Below are positions 4,772 to 57,385 of a stretch of 64,000 nt of DNA, piece by piece. Origin of the DNA: Roseimicrobium gellanilyticum (GTDB taxonomy: Bacteria > Verrucomicrobiota > Verrucomicrobiia > Verrucomicrobiales > Verrucomicrobiaceae); the NCBI RefSeq assembly GCF_003315205.1, contig NZ_QNRR01000009.1, positions 124,001 through 188,000 on the forward strand, given 5' to 3'. Every line of letters starts with the position of its first letter. Within the stretch, counting starts at the first letter, position 1. The notes beneath the pieces were generated by a model that saw only the letters and a program-made list of their open reading frames with translations, did not search any database and had not been told where the DNA came from. The translations under genes were made by a program, and so were the position numbers.

Positions 4772-7126
4772 GTGAAGAAGACCGTTTTCATCCTCTCCAG
4801 CCTGATGCCGCTGCCCATGGCCACCGCCGCGGTGGACTACGCGCGGGAGGTGAAGCCGTTGCTGGCCAGCGCCTGCGTGCAATGCCATGGAGCCGCCAAC
4901 CCGAAGGGCAGCCTGCGGCTCGACACGGCAGCAGCCATCTTCAAAGGAGGAAGTGATGGCCCTGCTGTGACTCCGGGAAAGGCAGACCAGAGTCTGCTGC
5001 TCACCGTGCTGCGCGGCGCCCACGACGAGATTCCGCAGATGCCCTACAAGCGGAACCCGCTGGCGCCGGAGCAGATCGCGATCCTCCAGCAGTGGATCGC
5101 GGAAGGCGCCCAAGCCCCGGCCCAGGAGACGCCAAGCGAATGGAGCCACTGGTCCTTTGGAGTGCCGAAGCGCGACAAGACAACGGGGCCTGAAAGAGAG
5201 CATCCCATCGATCACTTTATCAATGCCGCGCTCACGAAGCAGGGCATCGAACCTTCACCACGCGCCGATGCCACGACCCTGGCACGGCGGCTCTCGCTGG
5301 ATCTCACCGGCCTGCCTCCCAGTCTCGCGGTGGTGGAAGCTTTCACCAACGAGTTCGCCAAAAATCCAGCTTGGGGCGTTTACGCCTATACGACCTTTCT
5401 CCTCGACTCACCGCACCACGGCGAGCGCTGGGGCCGTTGGTGGCTGGATCAGGCGCGCTATGCAGACAGCAATGGCTACAGCATCGATGCGCCCCGCAGC
5501 ATCTGGCCCTATCGTGACTGGGTGGTGAAGGCGCTGAATAGGAACATGCCCTTTGATCAATTCACCATCGAGCAACTCGCAGGTGACCTCCTGCCCAAGC
5601 CCACCGTGGATCAGCTTGTGGCCACCGGCTTCCATCGCAATACCCAGGTGAATGGCGAAGGTGGCATCGACCCCGAGCAGTTCCGCATCGAGTCGGTGTT
5701 TGATCGCGTGGGCACCACGGGCACGGTGTGGCTTGGGCTCACCATCGCGTGCGCGCAGTGCCATGATCACAAGTTTGATCCGGTGACCCAGCGCGAGTTC
5801 TACGCGCTCTTTGCCTTCTTCAACAACCAGGAACAGGACGGCCACGGAGGGACCAAGACCTCCTCGGTGGAGATTCCCGATGCAAAGAAGGACATCCCCG
5901 GCCTGAAACGTGAAGAGGCAGACCTGAAAAAGAAAATCGAAGTGATGATGCCAGAGCGCCTCCCGGCCATCGCGCAGTGGGAATCAAAACTCACGGATGG
6001 AGAGAAGAAGAAGCTGAAGCCCGACCTGCGCAAGGTGCTCGTGGTACCCACAGAGAAGCGGAATGCCGCGCATCATCGCCTGCTCTATGCGCAATTCGCC
6101 TTCAACGATGCGGAGTTCAAGGGACTGAACGATCGCCTCATCGACGTGGAGAAGGAACTCTCCACGAAGACCACCTCCCTCACCATGCGTGACCTGCCAC
6201 AGCCGCGGGAAACACGTCTCTTCATCAAGGGGGACTTCACACGGCCGGATGCCGTCGTGACGCCCGGCACGCCCCATGTTCTGAATCCCTTGAACTACAC
6301 CGGCAGCAGTCAGCCCACCCGCCTCGATCTTGCCCGCTGGTTGGTCAGTCGTGACAATCCGCTCACCGCACGCGTGATCATGAACCGCGTATGGCAGGTG
6401 TATTTTGGCAAAGGACTGGTGGAAACGGAGAATGACTTCGGCACGCAAAGCAGTGCGCCCACGCACCCTGAGTTGCTCGACTGGCTCGCGTGTGAGTTCA
6501 TGGACAGCGGCTGGGACCTGAAGCACATGCACCTGCTCATCGTCACAAGCGAGACCTACCAACGCAGCTCAAAAGCGCGGAAGGACCTGGCCATCAAGGA
6601 TCCCACCAACCGCCTGCTCTCCCACCAGAACCGCCTGCGCATGGATGCGGAGATGGTGCGCGACACCTGCCTCAAGGCCACCGGTCTTCTTAACCCAAAA
6701 CTCGGTGGCGCTCCGGTCTATCCACCGCAGCCGGAAGGCGCGATGAACGTGGGCCAGATCAAGCGCCCGTGGCCCACCAGCACCGGGCCGGATCGCTACC
6801 GCCGTGGCCTGTACACCTTCTTCTTCCGTGCGAGCCCGCATCCGGCGCTGACGGTGTTTGACGCGCCGGATTCCTTCACCACGTGCACGCGCCGCATTCG
6901 CAGCAACACACCGCTGCAGGCACTCACCATGCTGAATGACCCGGCTTACTTCGAGCACGCGCAGGCGATGGCGAAGGTGGTGGACAGCCAGGGTGTGAAA
7001 ACTGCCTTCCGCCTGTGCGTGGCGCGCGAGCCCACTCCGAAAGAACTCGCCACCCTTTCCGCTCTTGATCCCCTCACCGCCGCGCGCGTGCTACTGAACC
7101 TGGATGAAACCATCACCCGCGAATGA
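4772..7126 (+). CDS. Planctomycete-type cytochrome c / DUF1549 / DUF1553 protein
   Basis: This 784-residue protein starts with GTG (4772) at MKKTVFILSS, a signal peptide. Domains in order: PSCyt1 (haem-type ACVQCHG near residue 33, then GSLRLDTAAAIFKGG), PSCyt2/DUF1549 (LARRLSLDLTGLPPS about residue 170 to CAQCHDHKFDPVTQREFYAL about 330), and PSD1/DUF1553 (TARVIMNRVWQVYFGKGLV about 540 through TPLQALTMLNDP about 710). Two CxxCH motifs imply covalent haem, but the biochemical role of the family is not established. Proteins like this are abundant only in Planctomycetes, Verrucomicrobia and relatives, and are almost always paired with DUF1501. The DUF1501 gene follows with a 4-base overlap, so the two are translationally coupled. 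Confidence 0.93.
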   Translation: MKKTVFILSSLMPLPMATAAVDYAREVKPLLASACVQCHGAANPKGSLRLDTAAAIFKGGSDGPAVTPGKADQSLLLTVLRGAHDEIPQMPYKRNPLAPEQIAILQQWIAEGAQAPAQETPSEWSHWSFGVPKRDKTTGPEREHPIDHFINAALTKQGIEPSPRADATTLARRLSLDLTGLPPSLAVVEAFTNEFAKNPAWGVYAYTTFLLDSPHHGERWGRWWLDQARYADSNGYSIDAPRSIWPYRDWVVKALNRNMPFDQFTIEQLAGDLLPKPTVDQLVATGFHRNTQVNGEGGIDPEQFRIESVFDRVGTTGTVWLGLTIACAQCHDHKFDPVTQREFYALFAFFNNQEQDGHGGTKTSSVEIPDAKKDIPGLKREEADLKKKIEVMMPERLPAIAQWESKLTDGEKKKLKPDLRKVLVVPTEKRNAAHHRLLYAQFAFNDAEFKGLNDRLIDVEKELSTKTTSLTMRDLPQPRETRLFIKGDFTRPDAVVTPGTPHVLNPLNYTGSSQPTRLDLARWLVSRDNPLTARVIMNRVWQVYFGKGLVETENDFGTQSSAPTHPELLDWLACEFMDSGWDLKHMHLLIVTSETYQRSSKARKDLAIKDPTNRLLSHQNRLRMDAEMVRDTCLKATGLLNPKLGGAPVYPPQPEGAMNVGQIKRPWPTSTGPDRYRRGLYTFFFRASPHPALTVFDAPDSFTTCTRRIRSNTPLQALTMLNDPAYFEHAQAMAKVVDSQGVKTAFRLCVAREPTPKELATLSALDPLTAARVLLNLDETITRE

Positions 7127-8607
7127 TGACGACGATGATGCCTTCTTCGAATGACATCTCCCAGCTTCACGCGGCGCAGGCAAGACTGCAGGCCGGCACA
7201 CGTCGTCATTTCTTCAGTCGCTGCTCGATGGGCTTGGGCTCCATCGCGCTTGCTTCAATGATGGCCGAGCAACAAGCCAAGGCCGCACCGTCACCGCAGG
7301 ATCCCCTGGCGCCGCAGAGGCCGCATGGAGCGCCGCGCGCGAAGAACGTCATCTACCTCTTCATGGCGGGCGGGCCCTCGCAGCTGGAGCTCTTCGACTA
7401 CAAGCCGCGGCTACAGGAGCTGAATGGCCAGCCCATTCCGCAGAGCTTCATCGAAGGGAAACGCTTCGCCTTCATGAACAGCAGCCATGGCGTGAAGCTG
7501 CTCGGCGCGCGTCGTGAGTTCAAGCAACACGGCCAGAGTGGCGCGTGGGTGAGCGATCTGCTGCCTCACACGGCGAGCGTGGCGGATGACCTCTGCTTTG
7601 TGAAATCCTGCGCCACGGAGCTCTTCAACCACGCACCGGCGAAGCTCTTCATGAACACGGGCAGCGGCCAGTTCGGTCGCCCCAGCATGGGCGCATGGGT
7701 GACGTATGGCCTCGGGAGTGAATCGCGCGATTTGCCCGGTTTCGTCGTGCTCCAGAGCGGCCCGCGTGGCCCGCGCGGTGGCGCGGTGAACTGGGCCAGT
7801 GGCTTCCTCCCCACGACCTATCAGGGCGTGCCGCTGCGCGGAACCGGAGAGCCCATCTTGAATCTCACCACACCCGGCGGTGTGAGCAGCGCGAGCCAGC
7901 GCAAGACCATCGATGCCATCCGCGATCTCAATCTCTCCCGCCTCGTGGAGACGGGCGATGCGGAAATCCAGACACGCATCAACTCCTACGAGATGGCGTA
8001 CCGCATGCAGACGAGTGCGCCGGACCTGATCGACATCAGCGGTGAGAGCAAGGCCACGCTGGATATGTATGGCGTGGATCCCTCGCAACCCTCCTTCGCA
8101 CGGAACTGCCTGCTGGCCCGCCGCCTTGTGGAGCGCGGGACCCGTTTCGTGCAGTTATACCATACAAACTGGGACAGCCATGGCGGCCCCGGCGAGACGC
8201 TGGAGGATGATTTCCCCCCTCGCTGCCGCGAAATTGACCAAGGCTGCGCTGCCCTCATCCGGGACCTGAAGTCCCGCGGCCTGCTGGAGGATACTCTCGT
8301 GATCTGGGGTGGCGAGTTCGGTCGCACGCCCATGGGTGAGAACCGGGACAAGACCGGGCGGAATCACCACATCGACGCCTTCACCATGTGGTTCGCAGGG
8401 GGTGGTGTGAAGGCGGGCCACACCTTCGGCAAGTCTGATGAGCTGGGCTTCAACGCTGTAGAGGACCGGGCGCATGTGCATGACCTGCACGCGACCATCC
8501 TCCACTTGCTGGGCATCGACCACAAGAAGCTGACCTTCCGCTTCCAGGGACGCGACTTCCGGCTCACGGATGTGCATGGAAAATTGCTACGTGGAATGCT
8601 CGCGTAA
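7123..8607 (+). CDS. DUF1501 protein, Tat-exported, sulfatase-like fold
   Basis: This 494-residue protein overlaps the stop of the cytochrome/DUF1549 gene by ATGA. A Tat signal lies at about residues 26-50 (TRRHFFSRCSMGLGSIALAS). The DUF1501 core resembles the alkaline phosphatase/sulfatase superfamily: IYLFMAGGPSQLELFDYKP near the N-terminus, YHTNWDSHGG in the middle, WGGEFGRTPMGENRDKTGRN and DLHATILHLLGID near the C-terminus. The metal-site-like Asp/His positions are retained, but I cannot say whether it is an active hydrolase. It is the standard genomic partner of DUF1549/DUF1553 proteins and probably works with that protein in the periplasm. Any of the ATG codons at 7123, 7126 or 7135 could be the start. 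Confidence 0.92.
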   Translation: MMTTMMPSSNDISQLHAAQARLQAGTRRHFFSRCSMGLGSIALASMMAEQQAKAAPSPQDPLAPQRPHGAPRAKNVIYLFMAGGPSQLELFDYKPRLQELNGQPIPQSFIEGKRFAFMNSSHGVKLLGARREFKQHGQSGAWVSDLLPHTASVADDLCFVKSCATELFNHAPAKLFMNTGSGQFGRPSMGAWVTYGLGSESRDLPGFVVLQSGPRGPRGGAVNWASGFLPTTYQGVPLRGTGEPILNLTTPGGVSSASQRKTIDAIRDLNLSRLVETGDAEIQTRINSYEMAYRMQTSAPDLIDISGESKATLDMYGVDPSQPSFARNCLLARRLVERGTRFVQLYHTNWDSHGGPGETLEDDFPPRCREIDQGCAALIRDLKSRGLLEDTLVIWGGEFGRTPMGENRDKTGRNHHIDAFTMWFAGGGVKAGHTFGKSDELGFNAVEDRAHVHDLHATILHLLGIDHKKLTFRFQGRDFRLTDVHGKLLRGMLA

Positions 8608-48932: not shown

Positions 48933-49034
48933 CCGAGGGTAGCCTGTACAAGGCAGCCTCCGCCAATCCCCGGAAGATTGGCCCGCAGAGGGCGTTTCCT
49001 CTTTCCGGTGTCCTTGCCTCGCCAGCCCCATATC

Positions 49035-51269
49035 ATGCCCTTGCGGTCCACGGTCTTTTTGGCCCTGGTTGGAGCGGTGTCTCTGGGTGGCGGGATGCCG
49101 GCTCAAGCGGCGGACGTTTCCTTCAAGAACGACGTGCAGGCCGCCATCGCCAAGGCGGGGTGCAATCTGGGCACATGCCACGGCAATGCCACAGGCAAGG
49201 GTGGCTTCAAGATGTCGCTCCGTGGGGATGACGCAGACTATGACTACGCCGCGCTCGTGCAGGATGTCAGCGGGCGCCGGGTAAACCTCATGGAGCCGGA
49301 ACGCAGCCTGCTGCTGCAGAAGGGCACGCAGGCCCTGGCCCACGAGGGTGGCAAGCGCTTCGACAAGAACTCGTGGGAATATGCCGTGCTGCGCGACTGG
49401 ATTGCCCAGGGCGCCCGCAGGCACACACCGGGGGAACCGGAGCTACAGAAGCTCGAAGTCACGCCGCGCGAGCAGATCCTCGTGGAGCCGCAGAAGGCGA
49501 TGCAGCTCAAGGCGACCGCGACTTTTTCCGATGGCACGCAGAAGGATGTGACCAAGCTGGCCGTGTATGAGCCCGCGCAGGTGGGCCTCATCAAAGTGAG
49601 CAAGGAAGGCCGTGTGGAGAAGCTGCAGGAAGGTGAGCCCACCATCGTGGTGCGTTACCTGAACAAGCAGCAGCCCGTGCGCCTGGCCTTCATCGCGGCA
49701 CGACCGGAGTTTGTGTGGACGCCCACGCCGCAGAACAACTTCGTGGATCGCCAGGTCTTCGCCAAGCTGAAGTCCCTGCGCATGACCCCGAGCGACCTCT
49801 GCACAGATGAGGTGTACGCAAGGCGCGCCTACCTCGACCTGTGCGGCGCGCTGCCCACGGTGGAGCAGGCGAAGGCCTTCGTGGCGGACAAGTCGCCCGA
49901 CAAGCGTGCCCGTCTTGTGGACGCGCTGATGACCACCGGCGCCTTCGCGGACTTCTGGGCGGTGAAATGGGCGGATGCGTTGCGCGTGGAGTCCCGCACC
50001 ATGGATGTGAAGGGGATGACGGCCTTCCACGCTTGGATCCGCGACGCGGTGGCGCGGAACACGCCTGTAGACAAGTTCTCCCACGCGGTGCTCTCCGCAC
50101 AAGGAAGCACCTACACGGTTCCACAGACAAACTTTTACCGCGCCATGCGCGAGCCCAATGCGCGCGCGGAGGGCATCGCCCGCGTGTTCCTCGGCACTCG
50201 TTTGCAGTGCGCGCAGTGCCACAACCACCCCTTTGATCGCTGGACGCAGGATGATTACTTCCAGTGGAGTGCGGTGTTCTCCCGCGTGGACTACAAGATC
50301 ATCAACAACGAGGTCGAGGACAAGAGCGACAAGCATCGCTTCAAGGGCGAGCAGGTGGTGCAGATTGCCAAGTCCACCAAGCTCATCAATCCCCGCACGG
50401 GTGAGCAGGCGAAGGCCAAGCTCCTGGGAGCCTCCGAACTCGATGCCCAGGTGCTGGAGCAGCAGGGTGATCTGAATGCCGCTGCCGATTGGGTGACCAG
50501 CCCCACGAATGCGCTCTTTGCCCAGGCGCAGGTGAATCGCATCTGGTTCCACCTCATGGGCCGCGGCCTCGTGGATCCGGTGGATGACTTCCGCGCCACA
50601 AATCCTGCCTCGCATCCCGAGCTGCTGAAGAAGCTCGCGGAGGAATTTGTACAGAGCGGCTATGACATGCGGCACATCATCCGCATCATCACGCAGTCGC
50701 GCACGTACCAGCTCAGCAGCGAGCCGAATGCGACGAACGCCGCGGACACGACCAACTTCGCCTACGCCTATGTGCGCCGGCTTACGGCCGAGCAGCTCTT
50801 CGATGCGCTGTACCAGGGGCTGGGTCTGCAGGCCAAGTTCGATGAGTTCCCCAAGGCCACGAAAGCCGTGCAACTTCCGGGACCCCTGAACCGTCGCAGA
50901 AAAGAAGCGGGCAATGACACTGGCGTGGCGTTTCTTGCCCAGTTCGGCCAGCCACCGCGCCTGCTCGCCTGCGAATGCGAGCGCAGCGACGAGACCACGA
51001 TGGGGCAGTCCTTCTCGCTCATCAGCGGACCGCAGGTGAACAACCTTCTGAAGAGCAACCGGAACATCCTCTCCCGCCTGTTGAATGAGAAGAGCGATGA
51101 CGCTGCCAGGGTGGAAGCGCTCTACTGGAGCGTGCTGACACGCGCGCCTTCTGCCCAGGAAAGGCAGACCATGGCAGCGATGCTCACCGAAGCCAAGGAC
51201 AAGCGCGCCGCGTTGGAGGACCTCGCGTGGAGCTTGGTGAATGCGAAGGAATTTGTGCTGCGCAAGTAG
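49035..51269 (+). CDS. Planctomycete-type cytochrome c / Ig-like / DUF1549 / DUF1553 protein
   Basis: The protein has 744 residues from the ATG at 49035, with signal peptide MPLRSTVFLALVGAVSLGGG ... AQA. Domains in order: N-terminal CNLGTCHG (a CxxxCH, not CxxCH, variant haem site) at about residue 43, an Ig-like BIG2 domain at about 160-240 (VEPQKAMQLKATATFSDGTQ), PSCyt2/DUF1549 from about 240 (RRAYLDLCGALPTVEQAK to QCAQCHNHPFDRWTQDDYFQ, CxxCH), and DUF1553 from about 490 (AQVNRIWFHLMGRGLVDP). It differs from the 4772-7126 paralogue by the Ig-like insertion. The usual DUF1501 partner is 3 kb away at 54326. Confidence 0.92.
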   Translation: MPLRSTVFLALVGAVSLGGGMPAQAADVSFKNDVQAAIAKAGCNLGTCHGNATGKGGFKMSLRGDDADYDYAALVQDVSGRRVNLMEPERSLLLQKGTQALAHEGGKRFDKNSWEYAVLRDWIAQGARRHTPGEPELQKLEVTPREQILVEPQKAMQLKATATFSDGTQKDVTKLAVYEPAQVGLIKVSKEGRVEKLQEGEPTIVVRYLNKQQPVRLAFIAARPEFVWTPTPQNNFVDRQVFAKLKSLRMTPSDLCTDEVYARRAYLDLCGALPTVEQAKAFVADKSPDKRARLVDALMTTGAFADFWAVKWADALRVESRTMDVKGMTAFHAWIRDAVARNTPVDKFSHAVLSAQGSTYTVPQTNFYRAMREPNARAEGIARVFLGTRLQCAQCHNHPFDRWTQDDYFQWSAVFSRVDYKIINNEVEDKSDKHRFKGEQVVQIAKSTKLINPRTGEQAKAKLLGASELDAQVLEQQGDLNAAADWVTSPTNALFAQAQVNRIWFHLMGRGLVDPVDDFRATNPASHPELLKKLAEEFVQSGYDMRHIIRIITQSRTYQLSSEPNATNAADTTNFAYAYVRRLTAEQLFDALYQGLGLQAKFDEFPKATKAVQLPGPLNRRRKEAGNDTGVAFLAQFGQPPRLLACECERSDETTMGQSFSLISGPQVNNLLKSNRNILSRLLNEKSDDAARVEALYWSVLTRAPSAQERQTMAAMLTEAKDKRAALEDLAWSLVNAKEFVLRK

Positions 51270-51483: not shown

Positions 51484-52821
51484 ATGCCCAGCGCCTCGAG
51501 AAACCCTGCTGCCGTATTCCACCTCACCCACGCCAAGGCGGGCTCGCAGTGGGTGTATCAGGTGCTTGATGCACTTTTCCCACACCGGATCGTCCATCCG
51601 CAAGCGATGACCGGGCAGTATCTCGATGGCTCTTTAAGGGAGGACGGTATCTATCCCACAGTCTATGCGACGAGGGAGGAATTTGAGGCAGGGCAGGTCC
51701 CTGCTCATCACCGGAAGTTTTTCGTCATCCGGGATCTCCGCGATACGCTGGTCTCTCTCTATTTCAGCCTCAAGCACAGTCATCCGAGCCGGAGCTATGA
51801 CATCGTGTCCCTGGTGCGCACGGACATGGGTGGCATGACCGACGAGCAGGGCATGGAGTTTCTTCTCTCCACCTACCTGGAGCGCATTGCCCAGACCCAG
51901 CTTTCGTGGCTGGATGGTGATGCTCCCATCTATCGGTATGAAGATGGCCTGCGGGATCCCATTGGGTTTTTTGGCAGGATGCTGGATCACAGCGAACTCC
52001 GCGTGTCGAACGCGATGCTGCGGAATGTGATCGATTCCATGTCGTTCGAAAAGCGGAGCGGCCGTCTCCGCGGCGAGGAGGATCGCAACTCGCACTACCG
52101 TCTGGGAGTGTCTGGCGACTGGCAAAATCATCTCCAGGGCACCTTGCTGGAAAAGTTCCTCGCACGGTATGGCCACGTGCTGGTGAAAACGGGATACGAA
52201 AAAGCAGAGGCCCTCCCCAGCACATGCCATGTCCAAGGCGGCAAGGAGCTCCAAGGTCGCACCGAACATGTCATGCCGGAGCTGCCAGAGGAAACCGTGG
52301 CAATCCTCAGAGCCTATCGCTGCAAAGACCACGACTGGTTTCAGCGTCAGTGGCAGCAAGCCGGTCCGGCCCGACCGGAGAACTCGCTGCAGCAGGACAC
52401 GCTAATCACCGGCACAGGGTGGTATCCCGTTGAGGAACAGGAGGGCCGCCCATTTTGCTGGGTAGCTGATGAAGCGGAGTTGACGGTACGGCGGCCCAGC
52501 GGCGGCATGACACGACTGCACCTCGAGGTGGAACCTGGTCCTTCGATTGGGTCCTTGCCTGCAAAACTCTCCGTGCTCGACCAGAATGGCCAGTCCATCA
52601 CCGCGGAAGAGATGGTGCCCGCCCGGCAATGGATCACGCTGGACCTCTCCGCATGCGTGGGAGACACGGGCGAGGATTGGAATCTGGTCCTCAAGGTCGA
52701 GGGTGCTGGAGCAGCCGTGACAGGGGATGCCAGAACCATGTCATACCGGGTCTTCCGTTTTGGCTGGGCTCCCACCCTGGGGGCAAGACAGGACGCCTGG
52801 GGGATGGAGGGGCCGGTATGA
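51484..52821 (+). CDS. Sulfotransferase with C-terminal beta-module
   Basis: This 445-residue protein has an N-terminal sulfotransferase domain with PAPS 5'-phosphosulfate loop HLTHAKAGSQWVYQVL (residues 13-28) and 3'-phosphate loop FVIRDLRDTLVSLYFSLKHS (about 80-99). Sulfotransferases of this type transfer sulfate from PAPS to a hydroxyl or amine of a glycan, lipid or protein. Residues 300-440 form a beta-module opening TGTGWYPVEEQEGRPFCWVA and ending in FRFGW; a similar C-terminal module occurs in the GT2 protein at 55841. The APS kinase gene overlaps its stop by ATGA, so the enzyme's cofactor supply is coupled to it. Confidence 0.85.
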   Translation: MPSASRNPAAVFHLTHAKAGSQWVYQVLDALFPHRIVHPQAMTGQYLDGSLREDGIYPTVYATREEFEAGQVPAHHRKFFVIRDLRDTLVSLYFSLKHSHPSRSYDIVSLVRTDMGGMTDEQGMEFLLSTYLERIAQTQLSWLDGDAPIYRYEDGLRDPIGFFGRMLDHSELRVSNAMLRNVIDSMSFEKRSGRLRGEEDRNSHYRLGVSGDWQNHLQGTLLEKFLARYGHVLVKTGYEKAEALPSTCHVQGGKELQGRTEHVMPELPEETVAILRAYRCKDHDWFQRQWQQAGPARPENSLQQDTLITGTGWYPVEEQEGRPFCWVADEAELTVRRPSGGMTRLHLEVEPGPSIGSLPAKLSVLDQNGQSITAEEMVPARQWITLDLSACVGDTGEDWNLVLKVEGAGAAVTGDARTMSYRVFRFGWAPTLGARQDAWGMEGPV

Positions 52822-53336
52822 GCGGCATCATCTGCTGGTTTTTTGGGCGTTCCGGGGCTGGCAAGAGCAGCCTCTCCTCCCATGTGGTGGCGCAGTTGCG
52901 TCAAGAAGGGCGGGCCACCTATCTGGTGGATGGCGATGCCCTGCGATCCGGCGTGTGCGCCGACCTGGGCTACGACGATGCCAGCCGCACAGAGAACCAC
53001 CGCCGCGCCGCAGAGATGGCCAGGCTGGCCAGTGAGCAGGGGTTGATCGTCATTGGGGCGACCATGTGTCCCGCGAGACACCACCGTGACCTGCTGAGAG
53101 ACATTCTGGGAGACCGGCTGCGGCTCATTCATGTAAGGGCCAGTCACGAAGTCTGTGCCATGCGCGATCCCAAAGGGCTCTACTGCCGTGCGCAGAAAGG
53201 TTTGGTGGATCATTTCGCAGCACAGACATTTCAAGATCCCACCGAGCATGAGGCTGATGGTGTCATTGATACCGGCCTCCACAATTTGGAGGCATGTCGC
53301 GAAACTGCCTGGACCATGGTGAAACGTCTGCTGTAA
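52818..53336 (+). CDS. cysC: Adenylylsulfate (APS) kinase
   Basis: The protein has 172 residues from the ATG at 52818, within the stop codon overlap with the sulfotransferase. It converts APS and ATP to PAPS. P-loop FGRSGAGKSSLSS; the APS-kinase blocks YLVDGDALRSGVCADLGYDD and ASRTENHRRAAEMARLASEQ (DGDxxR and R/N-H-R-R) match the family, and DPKGLYCRAQKGLVDHF is the C-terminal signature. In place of the ISPYRxxR phospho-acceptor serine region it has TMCPARHHRD, so the serine is a cysteine. The sulfotransferase gene on each side suggests dedicated PAPS supply. The next gene overlaps by TAATG. Confidence 0.9.
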   Translation: MSGIICWFFGRSGAGKSSLSSHVVAQLRQEGRATYLVDGDALRSGVCADLGYDDASRTENHRRAAEMARLASEQGLIVIGATMCPARHHRDLLRDILGDRLRLIHVRASHEVCAMRDPKGLYCRAQKGLVDHFAAQTFQDPTEHEADGVIDTGLHNLEACRETAWTMVKRLL

Positions 53337-54235
53337 TGAGATGGGTAGGCTGGCCCCGCAGTTTCATCGAGTGGTGCGGAGAATGCCGGTATGCATTGAT
53401 ATCGAACATGGATTTCATCTCCTATCCGCAGCGAACCTTCATGCCGTTGCCGGAAGCATTCGTCGAAGGCATCGGCCGTGATGATCGCTTTCTTCTGGCA
53501 TTCCCCAGGTCCGGATCCCGCTGGATGCTTGTCATGCTCACCGGTCTGATTGAAGAGGCTCACGACCTTCCGCGCAGCAACTTCTTCTCCCGCCCTGCCG
53601 ATGACCTTGGCCAGGGAGAAAGGAAATCTACACTTTTGGATTCTCACGGAAGATGCGTTCTGCCGAATGCCCACGGGAATCCACGCGAGAGTTCTGCTCT
53701 CCTTGCCATTGGCGAGACGCCGATCTTCCGGTCGCACCATCTCGCGGAAATCATCACACGGGCAAACGGACCCATCGTCTATATCGTGAGGCCACCAGCA
53801 CCGGCGCTCTACTCGTACTACCACTTCGCGCGGGGAGAAGGGCATGTGCCGGCGAGCCTCGGCATCGAGGAGTTTTGCACGATACATTTACCACTGTGGA
53901 AAGACCATGTGGCCACCATGCTGCAGCTGCACCGCATGACGCCGGGCCGGGTGCTCTTTCTCACCTACCGGGATCCGGGACCCTTTGAGCGGTTTCAGCT
54001 CGAGGCTGCCACGGCGCATTTCGGAATTCCAGCCTCCCCGGAGGCGGTGGAGCGCGCGCTCGCCGGCCTGGCGGGATTCCTGCCTCGGCTCAGCGCCCGC
54101 CCGGCCATGGCCCACCCGCGCGGGGTGAATGACGAACTCGTTCGCGAGCTCCCACGGGACCTGCTGCACTGGATCCACTCGGAAGCGGGTGAACTTTACC
54201 AGGAAGCGATGATGGCCGAGCGGTCCCGCGCCTGA
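53336..54235 (+). CDS. Sulfotransferase-like protein
   Basis: The protein has 299 residues from the ATG at 53336, which overlaps the cysC stop in TAATG; MDFISYPQ at 53408 is another start. PAPS 5'-loop LLAFPRSGSRWMLVMLTGLI (about residues 52-71) and 3'-loop IVYIVRPPAPALYSYYHFAR (about 145-164) fit the sulfotransferase superfamily. The rest has FLTYRDPGPFERFQLEAATA and GVNDELVRELP. It is a second sulfotransferase of the cassette and lacks the C-terminal module of the first. Substrate unknown. Confidence 0.78.
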   Translation: MRWVGWPRSFIEWCGECRYALISNMDFISYPQRTFMPLPEAFVEGIGRDDRFLLAFPRSGSRWMLVMLTGLIEEAHDLPRSNFFSRPADDLGQGERKSTLLDSHGRCVLPNAHGNPRESSALLAIGETPIFRSHHLAEIITRANGPIVYIVRPPAPALYSYYHFARGEGHVPASLGIEEFCTIHLPLWKDHVATMLQLHRMTPGRVLFLTYRDPGPFERFQLEAATAHFGIPASPEAVERALAGLAGFLPRLSARPAMAHPRGVNDELVRELPRDLLHWIHSEAGELYQEAMMAERSRA

Positions 54236-54325
54236 GCCAGAGGTTCCCCCACCGAAAGAGGGCTCGCCTCCGGGCCGTTGTTTCCCTGGCCATCCAATGG
54301 TACCATGGCTGCCCGTCTGTTGCTC

Positions 54326-55732
54326 ATGTCCCAGCCTTCCCCAGCCTGCCGCGACTTTCACAACACCTGCCTTTTGAGCCGGCGCTCGATCCTGCGTGTG
54401 GGTGGCATGGGCTTGTTTGGCATGACGCTGCCGCGCCTGCTGGGCGCGACGGAGGCTGCCAAGGTGGAGAAGCGTGTGGCCAGGGCCAAATCGGTGATCT
54501 TCCTCTTTCAGTGGGGCGGACCGAGCCATCTGGAGACCTTTGACATGAAGCCGGATGCACCGAGTGGCATCCGCGGCTTCCACAAGCCGATGTCCAGCAA
54601 CGCGGACGGCATCCAGGTGAACTCCCTGCTGCCCAAGACCGCGCAGATCATGGACAAGGTGACGCTCATCCGCAGCGTGCATCACAACATGAAAAATCAC
54701 AACAGCGCGGGCTACTACGCGCTGTCCGGCCATGCGCCACCCAGTGATGACCAGCGCCTGAAGGACACGCCGGATCTCTTCCCTGCCTACACCAGCGTGG
54801 CGGATGCCATGCTGCCCTCCCGGCTGGAGATTCCCACTTCAGTGCATCTGCCCTTCGTGGTGAGCGATGGCACGCAGACGCCGGGACAGTTCGCCAGCTT
54901 CCTCGGGAAGGCACGCGATCCCTTTCTGGTGACCAAGGATCCGAATGAAGCGAACTTCGCCCTCCCTGAGCTGAGCCTGCCAGATGGTATCACCTATGAG
55001 CGCCTTGCCGCACGTCGCGAAATGCAGAAGCTGGTGGACAGCCAGAGCCGTCTTCTGGAGTACTCTGCAGCGGCCAGGGGACTGGATGGATACTACGAAA
55101 AGGCCCTCGCCATGCTGCACAGCTCGCAAGTGCGCGAGGCCTTCGATCTCGGCAAGGAATCAGACAAGGTGCGCGACTCCTACGGACGCAGCTCCTATGG
55201 CCAGAGCTGTCTGCTGGCCCGCCGCCTTGTGGAGGCGGGGGTGAAGTTTGTCACGGTCACCTTCGATCCGGGCATCGGTGGACGACTCACCACGAGTGGG
55301 GGCTGGGATACGCACGGCTTCGACAACACCAGGATGTTTCCCATCATTGAGCAGCGTCACCTGCCGATGACGGAGCAGACCCTGCCTACGCTGTTAATGG
55401 ATCTGGATCAGCGCGGCCTGCTGGATGAGACGCTCGTGGTATGGGTGGGTGAATTCGGTCGCACGCCGCGCGTGAACAAATCCCTGAGCCGTGACCACTG
55501 GCCCTTCTGCTACACGGCGCTCATGGCTGGTGGCGGCACGAAGCGCGGCTTCGTCTATGGCGCCTCCGACAAGAACGGCGAGCATCCCTCCGACAAGCCC
55601 GTGAAGCCGGATGACCTGGCTGCGACGATGTACCACCTCATGGGCATCGACCCGCACCATGAGCTGCATGACCTTGCGAATCGTCCCGTGCCGCTGAGCT
55701 ATGGGAACGTGATCGAGGGTGTGATTGCCTGA
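54326..55732 (+). CDS. DUF1501 protein
   Basis: The protein has 468 residues from the ATG at 54326 (MSQPSPACRDFHNTCLLSRR); frames starting at 54278 or 54305 are possible. A Tat-like signal has SRRSILRVGGMGLFGMTLPR. Family motifs: VIFLFQWGGPSHLETFDMKP, RSVHHNMKNHNSAGYYALSG, TSGGWDTHGFDN, LVVWVGEFGRTPRVNKSLSR and DDLAATMYHLMGID, matching the paralogue at 7123 but with a longer middle part. It is the expected partner of the cytochrome/DUF1549 gene at 49035, from which the sulfotransferase cassette separates it. Confidence 0.92.
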   Translation: MSQPSPACRDFHNTCLLSRRSILRVGGMGLFGMTLPRLLGATEAAKVEKRVARAKSVIFLFQWGGPSHLETFDMKPDAPSGIRGFHKPMSSNADGIQVNSLLPKTAQIMDKVTLIRSVHHNMKNHNSAGYYALSGHAPPSDDQRLKDTPDLFPAYTSVADAMLPSRLEIPTSVHLPFVVSDGTQTPGQFASFLGKARDPFLVTKDPNEANFALPELSLPDGITYERLAARREMQKLVDSQSRLLEYSAAARGLDGYYEKALAMLHSSQVREAFDLGKESDKVRDSYGRSSYGQSCLLARRLVEAGVKFVTVTFDPGIGGRLTTSGGWDTHGFDNTRMFPIIEQRHLPMTEQTLPTLLMDLDQRGLLDETLVVWVGEFGRTPRVNKSLSRDHWPFCYTALMAGGGTKRGFVYGASDKNGEHPSDKPVKPDDLAATMYHLMGIDPHHELHDLANRPVPLSYGNVIEGVIA

Positions 55733-55840
55733 TACAAGCCTGGGGATACCCCGGCCAGGCTGGCCTAGCGTTGCTGCGGAATTGAGTTTCCGTTTCCTCC
55801 AGCAGTGCGATGCTGGAGAAACCGCCTGTGCACTGCCCGC

Positions 55841-57385
55841 ATGGAGACAGCCTCCGCCGTCCCCCCGGATCCCACCTTGATTTCATCCGCTGTTCCTGCC
55901 CCCAGGTTCAGCGTCATCATCCCGCTGGAATTTCACCGTGGGCAGGGACACGATTGTCTGCAGGGCTGGACACAAGGTCAGGATTTTCCTCGCGACCAAT
56001 TTGAGATTGTGCTCGCGATTCCGCCCAGCTTCCCTGAGGACGAAGCCGCCGTCTTGCGGACCATGCTGGCGCCACACGACCAGGCCATTGATCTGCCACA
56101 TGAGCATGACATCGCCCTCTGCGCGGCGGCGGCGCGGCACGCGCGGGGCGAGATTCTCTTCTTCACTGAATCCCACTGTCTGCCGGAGCAAGACGTGCTC
56201 ACCCAGGCAGAGCGGGGTCTGCGGGCACATCCGGAGTGGGCGGGCTTCAGTTGCGAGTCCGTGCCCATCACGCACAACCTGCTTTCCAAAATCGAAGCAG
56301 GATTCTACGAGCGCGACATCCGGGAAGCCATGGAGCACCCATGGAGAAATATCCTGGACCAGTGCTTCGTCACCACCCGCAAGGCGTACCTGACTTCAGG
56401 CGGCTTTGATGGCAGCCTCGGCCACTTCGCGGAATGGGTGCTCTCTGCACGCTACCGCCAGCATGGACTGAAGCTCGGCTACTGGCCGGCCGCTCGTATC
56501 CACCACTATTACATCGGAGAGATCGATGAGTGGTGGGAGTTCACCGAAGACTTCACTGCCGGGGAGAGTGCCATGCTCACCCGCCCGGTCCGGGACCCGG
56601 TGCTCAGCTGGTTCGATGAAAACGACGAGTGGGCGGCACGACATGAGAACTCGCGAGGGCTCGCATGGAAGATGGCCCTGATGGTGCTGCGATCGATGTT
56701 CTCGTCGAAACAAGCAGCCTCGGAAGCAGGGCCAGAATCATCGCCTTCCCATACGGATGGTAACGGGCGTGATCTCTTCCGTTGGCTCGCGCGTGGGCTC
56801 TTGGGGAGCTGGGCGCCGCTTCTCTCGGCACACGGGCGGGTGTTGCGAGCGTACGCGTTGCTGAATTTCGCGCTCTGGCGGGAGGACCGCGAAGGAGCGG
56901 AGCGAGCGTTGCCCAAGCTGTGCAAGGCCCTGACGAGTCGGCGCCGTCGGCAGTTGCTGCGTCAGCACCAGCCATCACACCCACGTTCGGCCGATCCCAT
57001 CCCGCCCAGTGGCGATTGGATTCCCGAGAATAATACCCCAATGGTCTGTGCCGGGTTCCACGCCACGGAGACCTGGCGTGACGCGCCACTGCGCTGGTCC
57101 AAGCCCGCTGCCATGGTGGAATTGCACCTGCAAAAAGGTAAGCATGAGGTGACCCTCGAGTGGATGCCCCGGGCCACGCCACTTCATATCCAGTTCTTCA
57201 TCAATGAGAAACCGCTGAAGCCAGCTGCGGTAAAGATAGGCAAACGGAAAGCTCGCCTGCGTTTCCGGCTCAACCGCGAAGGACAGGTACGACTCGGCTG
57301 GGTCTGCAATCCCCACCACTCACCGGACGATCCCCGTCGGGCTGGCGTAGCCGTGAGGCGGTTGATTTGGGCCGCCCGTTCCTGA
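55841..57385 (+). CDS. GT2-like glycosyltransferase with C-terminal beta-module
   Basis: The protein has 514 residues from the ATG at 55841 (METASAVPPDPTLISSAVPA); the frame opens 12 residues earlier. The GT-A domain starts RFSVIIPLEFHRGQGHDCLQ and has RGEILFFTESHCLPEQDVLT as the DxD-like region (with ES instead of DD), then TTRKAYLTSGGFDGSLGHFA and AEWVLSARYRQHGLKLGYWP, which fit GT2. Residues 280-390 are a helical linker, with a Ser-rich part. Residues 400-510 are a beta-module (GDWIPENNTPMVCAGFHATE ... GVAVRRLIWAA) related in layout to that of the sulfotransferase at 51484. A cytosolic or membrane-associated enzyme of surface glycan synthesis is likely. Confidence 0.75.
   Translation: METASAVPPDPTLISSAVPAPRFSVIIPLEFHRGQGHDCLQGWTQGQDFPRDQFEIVLAIPPSFPEDEAAVLRTMLAPHDQAIDLPHEHDIALCAAAARHARGEILFFTESHCLPEQDVLTQAERGLRAHPEWAGFSCESVPITHNLLSKIEAGFYERDIREAMEHPWRNILDQCFVTTRKAYLTSGGFDGSLGHFAEWVLSARYRQHGLKLGYWPAARIHHYYIGEIDEWWEFTEDFTAGESAMLTRPVRDPVLSWFDENDEWAARHENSRGLAWKMALMVLRSMFSSKQAASEAGPESSPSHTDGNGRDLFRWLARGLLGSWAPLLSAHGRVLRAYALLNFALWREDREGAERALPKLCKALTSRRRRQLLRQHQPSHPRSADPIPPSGDWIPENNTPMVCAGFHATETWRDAPLRWSKPAAMVELHLQKGKHEVTLEWMPRATPLHIQFFINEKPLKPAAVKIGKRKARLRFRLNREGQVRLGWVCNPHHSPDDPRRAGVAVRRLIWAARS

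What the first reader, a model, noticed from the sequence alone, without database searches (positions are those of the whole stretch)
51484..54235. Translationally coupled sulfotransferase - APS kinase - sulfotransferase cassette
The three genes overlap by ATGA and TAATG, so the PAPS-making enzyme sits between two PAPS users. No ATP sulfurylase or sulfate-assimilation gene is near, which argues for a dedicated role in glycan or lipid sulfation rather than cysteine synthesis. Together with the GT2 enzyme at 55841 this may be a previously undescribed sulfated surface-glycan system of Verrucomicrobia.
Basis: partly seen in the sequence, partly recalled or inferred. Interest (0 to 1): 0.7.

Follow-up and report, generated by a model that had tools for sequence, protein, structure and literature searches.

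The report
Sulfation cassette with its own PAPS-maker
Two predicted sulfate-attaching enzymes flank the only gene in this soil-type bacterium's genome that makes their activated sulfate donor, and comparison with relatives suggests that this gene serves sulfation rather than amino-acid synthesis; what gets sulfated is not known.

Summary
The cassette is real. Two PF00685 sulfotransferases (ST1, ST2) flank an APS kinase; ST1/APSK overlap by ATGA, and APSK/ST2 by TAATG if ST2 starts at 53336. The APSK is the genome's only one; ATP sulfurylase (CysDN) lies on another contig beside a CysH. First reading partly supported. For: in 47 good-quality genomes of the family, APSK tracks sulfotransferases (23 both, 8 APSK only, 1 ST only, 15 neither); 14 of 49 family APSK genes lie within 2 kb of a sulfotransferase (about 0.06 expected); 16 of the 47 have no APSK, 15 of them still with CysD and CysH. 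Their CysH is a compact type without [4Fe-4S] cysteines that probably reduces APS directly, so the kinase looks dispensable for cysteine. Against: the exact ST-APSK-ST order was found only here (the sister species has ST1, an unrelated ST, then APSK); the GT2 is unlinked to the cassette in the sister; no export or assembly genes are present; clusters with their own PAPS genes, and sulfated exopolymer in Verrucomicrobiota, are already published. The cassette looks like cargo inserted between two genes that are adjacent in a sister genus. Acceptor: probably a glycan, not shown.

The parts
51484..52821 (+). ST1: PAPS-type sulfotransferase (PF00685) with a C-terminal beta-sandwich that resembles carbohydrate-binding modules
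   Evidence: Pfam; motifs THAKAGSQW, VIRDLRDTLVSLYF and YRLGVSGDWQNH in sequence, the last aligned to SULT enzymes; C-terminal domain (low-confidence model)
52818..53336 (+). APS kinase (CysC-type), the only one in the genome
   Evidence: PF01583 E=2.9e-37, sole genome match, PDB relatives CysC of M. tuberculosis; P-loop GRSGAGKSS, DGDALR, ENHRRAAE, RDPKGLY kept
53336..54235 (+). ST2: second sulfotransferase (PF00685, N-terminal two thirds of the profile matched); start uncertain
   Evidence: Pfam; SULT1C3 match E=8e-7; FPRSGSRWM and IVYIVRPPAPALYSYYHF motifs; C-terminal GDW motif degenerate
48978..51269 (+). Flank: DUF1549/DUF1553 (PSCyt2/PSD1) gene, resident; marks the insertion site
   Evidence: Pfam; next to DUF1501 without cassette in G002, G012, G018
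54278..55732 (+). Flank: DUF1501 gene, resident partner of PSD1
   Evidence: Pfam
55805..57385 (+). GT2-like glycosyltransferase with C-terminal extension; possible, unproven partner (start 55805 or 55841)
   Evidence: No Pfam match; weak MftF-type GT match; sister-species orthologue fused to ST-like domain but unlinked to the cassette; codon usage like the cassette

Best explanation
A small sulfation operon. CysDN, encoded elsewhere, makes APS from sulfate and ATP. The cassette's APS kinase phosphorylates APS to PAPS, and ST1 and ST2, translated from the same message, pass the sulfuryl group to an acceptor. As the only APS kinase of the genome it must also feed the third sulfotransferase (contig 10). 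Cysteine synthesis most likely does not need it, because the compact [4Fe-4S]-free CysH of this family probably reduces APS directly. The acceptor is more likely a glycan than a small molecule. Shown: gene identities at family level, sole-copy status, recurrent ST-APSK linkage, APSK-free relatives with CysD and CysH, location between PSD1 and DUF1501 genes that are adjacent in a sister genus. Inferred: all enzyme activities, co-transcription, APS use by CysH, the acceptor.
For: Sole APSK; family-level co-occurrence APSK/ST in 47 good genomes 23/8/1/15, Fisher p=8.5e-6; 14 of 49 APSK within 2 kb of an ST against about 0.06 expected, spread over at least five places in the kinase tree; ATGA coupling recurs between ST and APSK in six loci of the larger genus g8. 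16 of 47 good family genomes lack APSK, 15 of these with two PF01507 genes. Compact CysH: 12 of 33 genomes without APSK against 0 of 40 with long-type CysH in the same class, Fisher p=1.9e-5. Fe-S-free enzymes that reduce APS exist (PMC2275785). Glycan acceptor: CBM-like domain of ST1; nearest named ST1 relatives lie in polysaccharide clusters of Roseobacter plasmids; GT2-ST fusion in the sister species.
Against: Own CysH looks like a PAPS reductase by cysteine motif and by best PDB and NCBIfam matches, though under every curated cut-off. APSK is under NCBIfam's apsK equivalog cut-off (127.1 against 138.7). ST2 lacks a clear GDW motif. No glycan assembly or export genes next to the cassette. 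The sister species has an NRPS-like A-T-TE gene and a methyltransferase beside its version, which hints at a small-molecule acceptor. The p-values ignore the shared ancestry of the genomes.
Confidence: 0.66

Rival explanations
1. House-keeping cysC in an odd place: the sole APS kinase also makes the PAPS needed by CysH for cysteine, and its position between two sulfotransferases only reflects co-regulation of PAPS users.
For: Only APSK of the genome; CysH lacks the Fe-S cysteines, the usual mark of PAPS reductases, and matches E. coli-type PAPS reductase best.
Against: Same compact CysH in 12 good genomes without any APSK, over at least three families; APSK co-occurs with STs in the family; Fe-S-free APS reductases are known (PMC2275785).
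Confidence: 0.2
2. Same chemistry, but the acceptor is a small molecule or lipid (natural-product tailoring) rather than a surface glycan. (Not exclusive of the best explanation's enzymology.)
For: Sister species carries an AMP-binding/PP-binding/thioesterase protein and a methyltransferase next to ST-ST-APSK; natural-product clusters with APSK and ST are known (PMC12135136, PMC2679770); no glycan export genes here.
Against: No biosynthetic genes beside the cassette in the window; CBM-like domain on ST1; ST1 relatives in polysaccharide clusters.
Confidence: 0.3
3. Recently inserted, little-used or decaying cargo without a working sulfation pathway.
For: Atypical codon usage (0.57-0.58 against 0.72-0.74 for the flanks); content differs from the sister species; ST2 C-terminal motif degenerate.
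Against: All three frames intact; ST1 (63% identity) and APSK (74%) kept in both species; key motifs kept.
Confidence: 0.08

Closest known systems
adp 'sulfation cassette' of Streptomyces davaonensis (AdpST with adpP1-P3; PMC12135136)
   Same: Sulfotransferase encoded with a dedicated APS kinase so that donor supply matches demand
   Different: adp carries ATP sulfurylase too, the genome has further PAPS genes, and it sits in a type III PKS cluster; here the kinase is alone and the only one
Sulfated capsule clusters of Vibrio sp. KMM 8419 and Cobetia marina KMM 1449 (PMC11641403, PMC11766843)
   Same: PAPS genes and sulfotransferases in one locus
   Different: Those loci hold 70-80 genes with glycosyltransferases and ABC export; here three genes plus one uncertain GT2
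sxtN/sxtO of saxitoxin clusters (PMC2679770)
   Same: A sulfotransferase and a stand-alone APS kinase in one biosynthetic cluster
   Different: Alkaloid pathway in cyanobacteria; the authors consider sxtO replaceable by other genomic copies
Sulfated glycosaminoglycan-like exopolymers of Pontiella (Kiritimatiellae, Verrucomicrobiota; PMC7356697)
   Same: Sulfotransferases and glycosyltransferases in the same phylum, with product detected
   Different: The paper does not mention PAPS genes in the cluster; different class; PF13469 sulfotransferases

Membership tests
APS kinase (PF01583, CysC) | Pfam gathering score and core motifs (P-loop, DGD, ENxRR, RDPKGLY) | tested here: met
   128.5 bits against 21.1; motifs in alignment
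APS kinase (PF01583, CysC) | NCBIfam equivalog-domain cut-off for apsK (TIGR00455) | tested here: not met
   127.1 bits against 138.7; among the best models but under cut-off, so membership is claimed at Pfam family level and activity is inferred only
APS kinase (PF01583, CysC) | ATP-dependent phosphorylation of APS | not testable with these tools
   needs an assay
PAPS-dependent sulfotransferase (PF00685) | Pfam gathering score | tested here: met
   ST1 33.6 and ST2 38.9 bits against 22
PAPS-dependent sulfotransferase (PF00685) | 5'-phosphosulfate loop, 3'-phosphate motif and C-terminal GDW motif | tested here: inconclusive
   ST1 has all three by inspection; ST2 has the first two, the third is degenerate
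PAPS-dependent sulfotransferase (PF00685) | P-loop-like sulfotransferase fold | tested here: inconclusive
   single-sequence models failed in the ST domains (pLDDT under 50)
Dedicated PAPS + ST 'sulfation cassette' (adp type) | APS kinase next to the sulfotransferase | tested here: met
   overlapping frames
Dedicated PAPS + ST 'sulfation cassette' (adp type) | ATP sulfurylase in the same cluster | tested here: not met
   CysDN on contig 11, cassette on contig 9
Sulfated capsule or exopolysaccharide cluster | Glycan assembly and export genes in the locus | tested here: not met
   only one GT2, beyond a DUF1501 gene

The most novel reading that the evidence does not exclude
In this bacterial family and some other Verrucomicrobiota, sulfate assimilation runs APS to sulfite through a compact CysH with neither the [4Fe-4S] cysteines nor the GDxHTT loop. 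That frees APS kinase from cysteine synthesis, so it has become a mobile accessory gene of sulfotransferase cassettes, of which this ST-APSK-ST operon is one.
Probability: 0.5. Interest if true: 0.6.

Novelty: new member of a known kind. Interest (0 to 1): 0.38.

Why it matters
If right, the presence of cysC in these genomes predicts sulfation and not sulfate assimilation, so routine annotation of it as a cysteine-pathway gene misleads. The cassette gives a compact, testable route to a sulfated product in a soil-type member of Verrucomicrobiota. The compact CysH would be a bacterial counterpart of the Fe-S-free APS reductase known from moss and algae.

Tried and rejected
Direct linkage of the GT2 to the cassette: rejected as a conserved feature. 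ST2 as orthologue of the sister's second ST: no meaningful similarity. Shared C-terminal domain of ST1 and GT2: not detectable by BLASTP. Relatives of ST1 in named bacterial genomes: the scan chose C-terminal peptides and confirmed none. APSK scan of named genomes: one distant Conexibacter kinase, no sulfotransferase noticed beside it (neighbours not scanned with Pfam). Structures: single-sequence models poor, only the ST1 C-terminal domain usable; the matched CBM fold is a common jelly roll and Z is 8-9, so it is weak evidence. Alignments with relatives were not given to the structure tool because loci from whole genomes are not on its stated list. ST2 against phages: none. Promoter and terminator scan uninformative: counts near those of shuffles. 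Absence of APSK in relatives might be assembly gaps: restricted to genomes at least 90% complete, but a draft can still miss a gene.

Full report
What is there. Three same-strand frames, ST1 (51484-52821), APS kinase (52818-53336) and ST2 (53336-54235), are intact and overlap by ATGA and, if ST2 begins at 53336, by TAATG. All three pass Pfam's gathering scores: Sulfotransfer_1 for ST1 and ST2, APS_kinase for the middle gene. The kinase keeps the P-loop, DGD, ENxRR and RDPKGLY motifs but scores under NCBIfam's apsK cut-off and is one of a set of divergent kinases in the family. ST2's start is not proven; an in-frame ATG at 53408 would remove the overlap. In the sister species the corresponding genes do not overlap (gaps of about 73 and 22 bases, from the coordinates).

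Whole genome. The window lies in a 7.93-Mb, 32-contig genome. It has one APS kinase, the one here, three PF00685 sulfotransferases, two here and one on contig 10 beside a large GT2-type glycosyltransferase and a TylF-type methyltransferase, no Sat, and a CysH-CysD-CysN cluster on contig 11. CysN is not fused to a kinase. The genus may be Roseimicrobium (the sister record is a single 7.96-Mb contig, as reported for strain ORNL1, PMC7330248); this is inference.

Does CysH need this kinase? The own CysH is a compact form of 218 residues. It lacks the paired cysteines of [4Fe-4S] APS reductases, has TTNFRPYE where the long-type CysH of the same order has SSFGAQ, and lacks the GDxHTT stretch, but keeps the ECGLH tail. 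By the cysteine rule alone it would be called a PAPS reductase. But the same compact CysH occurs in good-quality genomes with no APS kinase at all: 12 of 33 genomes with it lack a kinase, against 0 of 40 genomes of the same class with long-type CysH (compact and long types told apart by profile score, above 200 against about 92-136 bits). In the family itself 16 of 47 good genomes have no kinase and 15 of those carry two PF01507 genes, the CysD plus CysH pair. The literature holds that lack of the cluster does not prove PAPS use (moss APR-B; PMC2275785), and for Corynebacterium lack of cysC was itself used as evidence that CysH takes APS (PMC1266029). The most likely reading is that compact CysH reduces APS. 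This is inference; shared ancestry of the genomes makes the p-values too small, though the kinase-free cases fall in at least three families.

What does the kinase follow? In the same 47 genomes it follows sulfotransferases: 23 with both, 8 with kinase only, 1 with sulfotransferase only, 15 with neither. Of 49 kinase genes in the family 14 lie within 2 kb of a sulfotransferase against about 0.06 expected, at at least five places of the kinase tree. In the larger genus g8 six loci pair a kinase by ATGA with a sulfotransferase protein of about 900 residues; the one tested is a fusion of a type I phosphodiesterase domain, TPRs and a sulfotransferase domain. So the association is general in the family, while the exact ST-APSK-ST order was found only here.

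How it got here. In three genomes of a sister genus the DUF1549/DUF1553 gene and the DUF1501 gene are neighbours with about 140-170 bases between; here 3.0 kb and in the sister species 6.7 kb of other genes lie between them. Cassette genes use codons unlike their flanks (relative index 0.57-0.58 against 0.72-0.74). The sister species has ST1 (63% identity), an unrelated sulfotransferase, the kinase (74%), then a methyltransferase and an A-T-TE protein. This looks like cargo inserted in the genus ancestor and reshuffled since.

Acceptor. For a glycan: ST1's C-terminal domain, the only part modelled with moderate confidence, matches carbohydrate-binding modules and the CBM-like domain of a cellulose synthase subunit (Z 8-9, a common fold, so weak); its nearest named relatives, 26-28% identical, sit in polysaccharide clusters of Roseobacter plasmids; the sister's GT2 orthologue is fused to a domain with sub-threshold matches to galactose-3-O-sulfotransferase and Sulfotransfer_2. 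For a small molecule: the A-T-TE gene in the sister species. Neither is shown.

Comparison with what is known. Genes for PAPS supply placed with sulfotransferases are published for capsules (PMC11641403, PMC11766843), for adipostatin, where the term sulfation cassette is used (PMC12135136), and for saxitoxin (PMC2679770). Sulfated exopolymers are known in Verrucomicrobiota (PMC7356697). The present case is a small new member of that kind, without its own ATP sulfurylase and with the genome's only APS kinase. The more surprising part is the compact CysH, which was not in the finding.

Noticed in passing
L055:7519-8175 (-), own genome contig 11, 63521-64174 (-): Compact CysH (216-220 aa) without [4Fe-4S] cysteines or GDxHTT loop, present in family f1 and in f9, f26, f38 and f64 of the phylum; 12 of 33 carriers lack APS kinase. 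Probably an Fe-S-free APS reductase.
   Followed up: partly
L052:3757-6971 and similar pairs in L053, L054, L060, L061, L064: Protein of about 900 aa joining a type I phosphodiesterase domain, TPRs and a C-terminal sulfotransferase domain (Pfam run on L052 only), ATGA-coupled to an APS kinase.
   Followed up: partly
L124:8183-11155 (+), same gene as L118:1420-4392: In the sister species the window's GT2 orthologue (48%) is fused to a Gal-3-O-sulfotransferase/Sulfotransfer_2-like domain (sub-threshold) and a further C-terminal domain.
   Followed up: partly
L037:3110-5884 (-): A-T-TE (AMP-binding, PP-binding, thioesterase) protein beside the sister species' ST-ST-APSK set.
   Followed up: no
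window 4772-8607: A second DUF1549/DUF1553-like and DUF1501-like gene pair, overlapping by ATGA, without cassette, followed by a GT4-like gene.
   Followed up: no
L063:4267-6639 and L070: Asp/Asn beta-hydroxylase-like gene next to a PF13469 sulfotransferase and an APS kinase (two close genomes).
   Followed up: no
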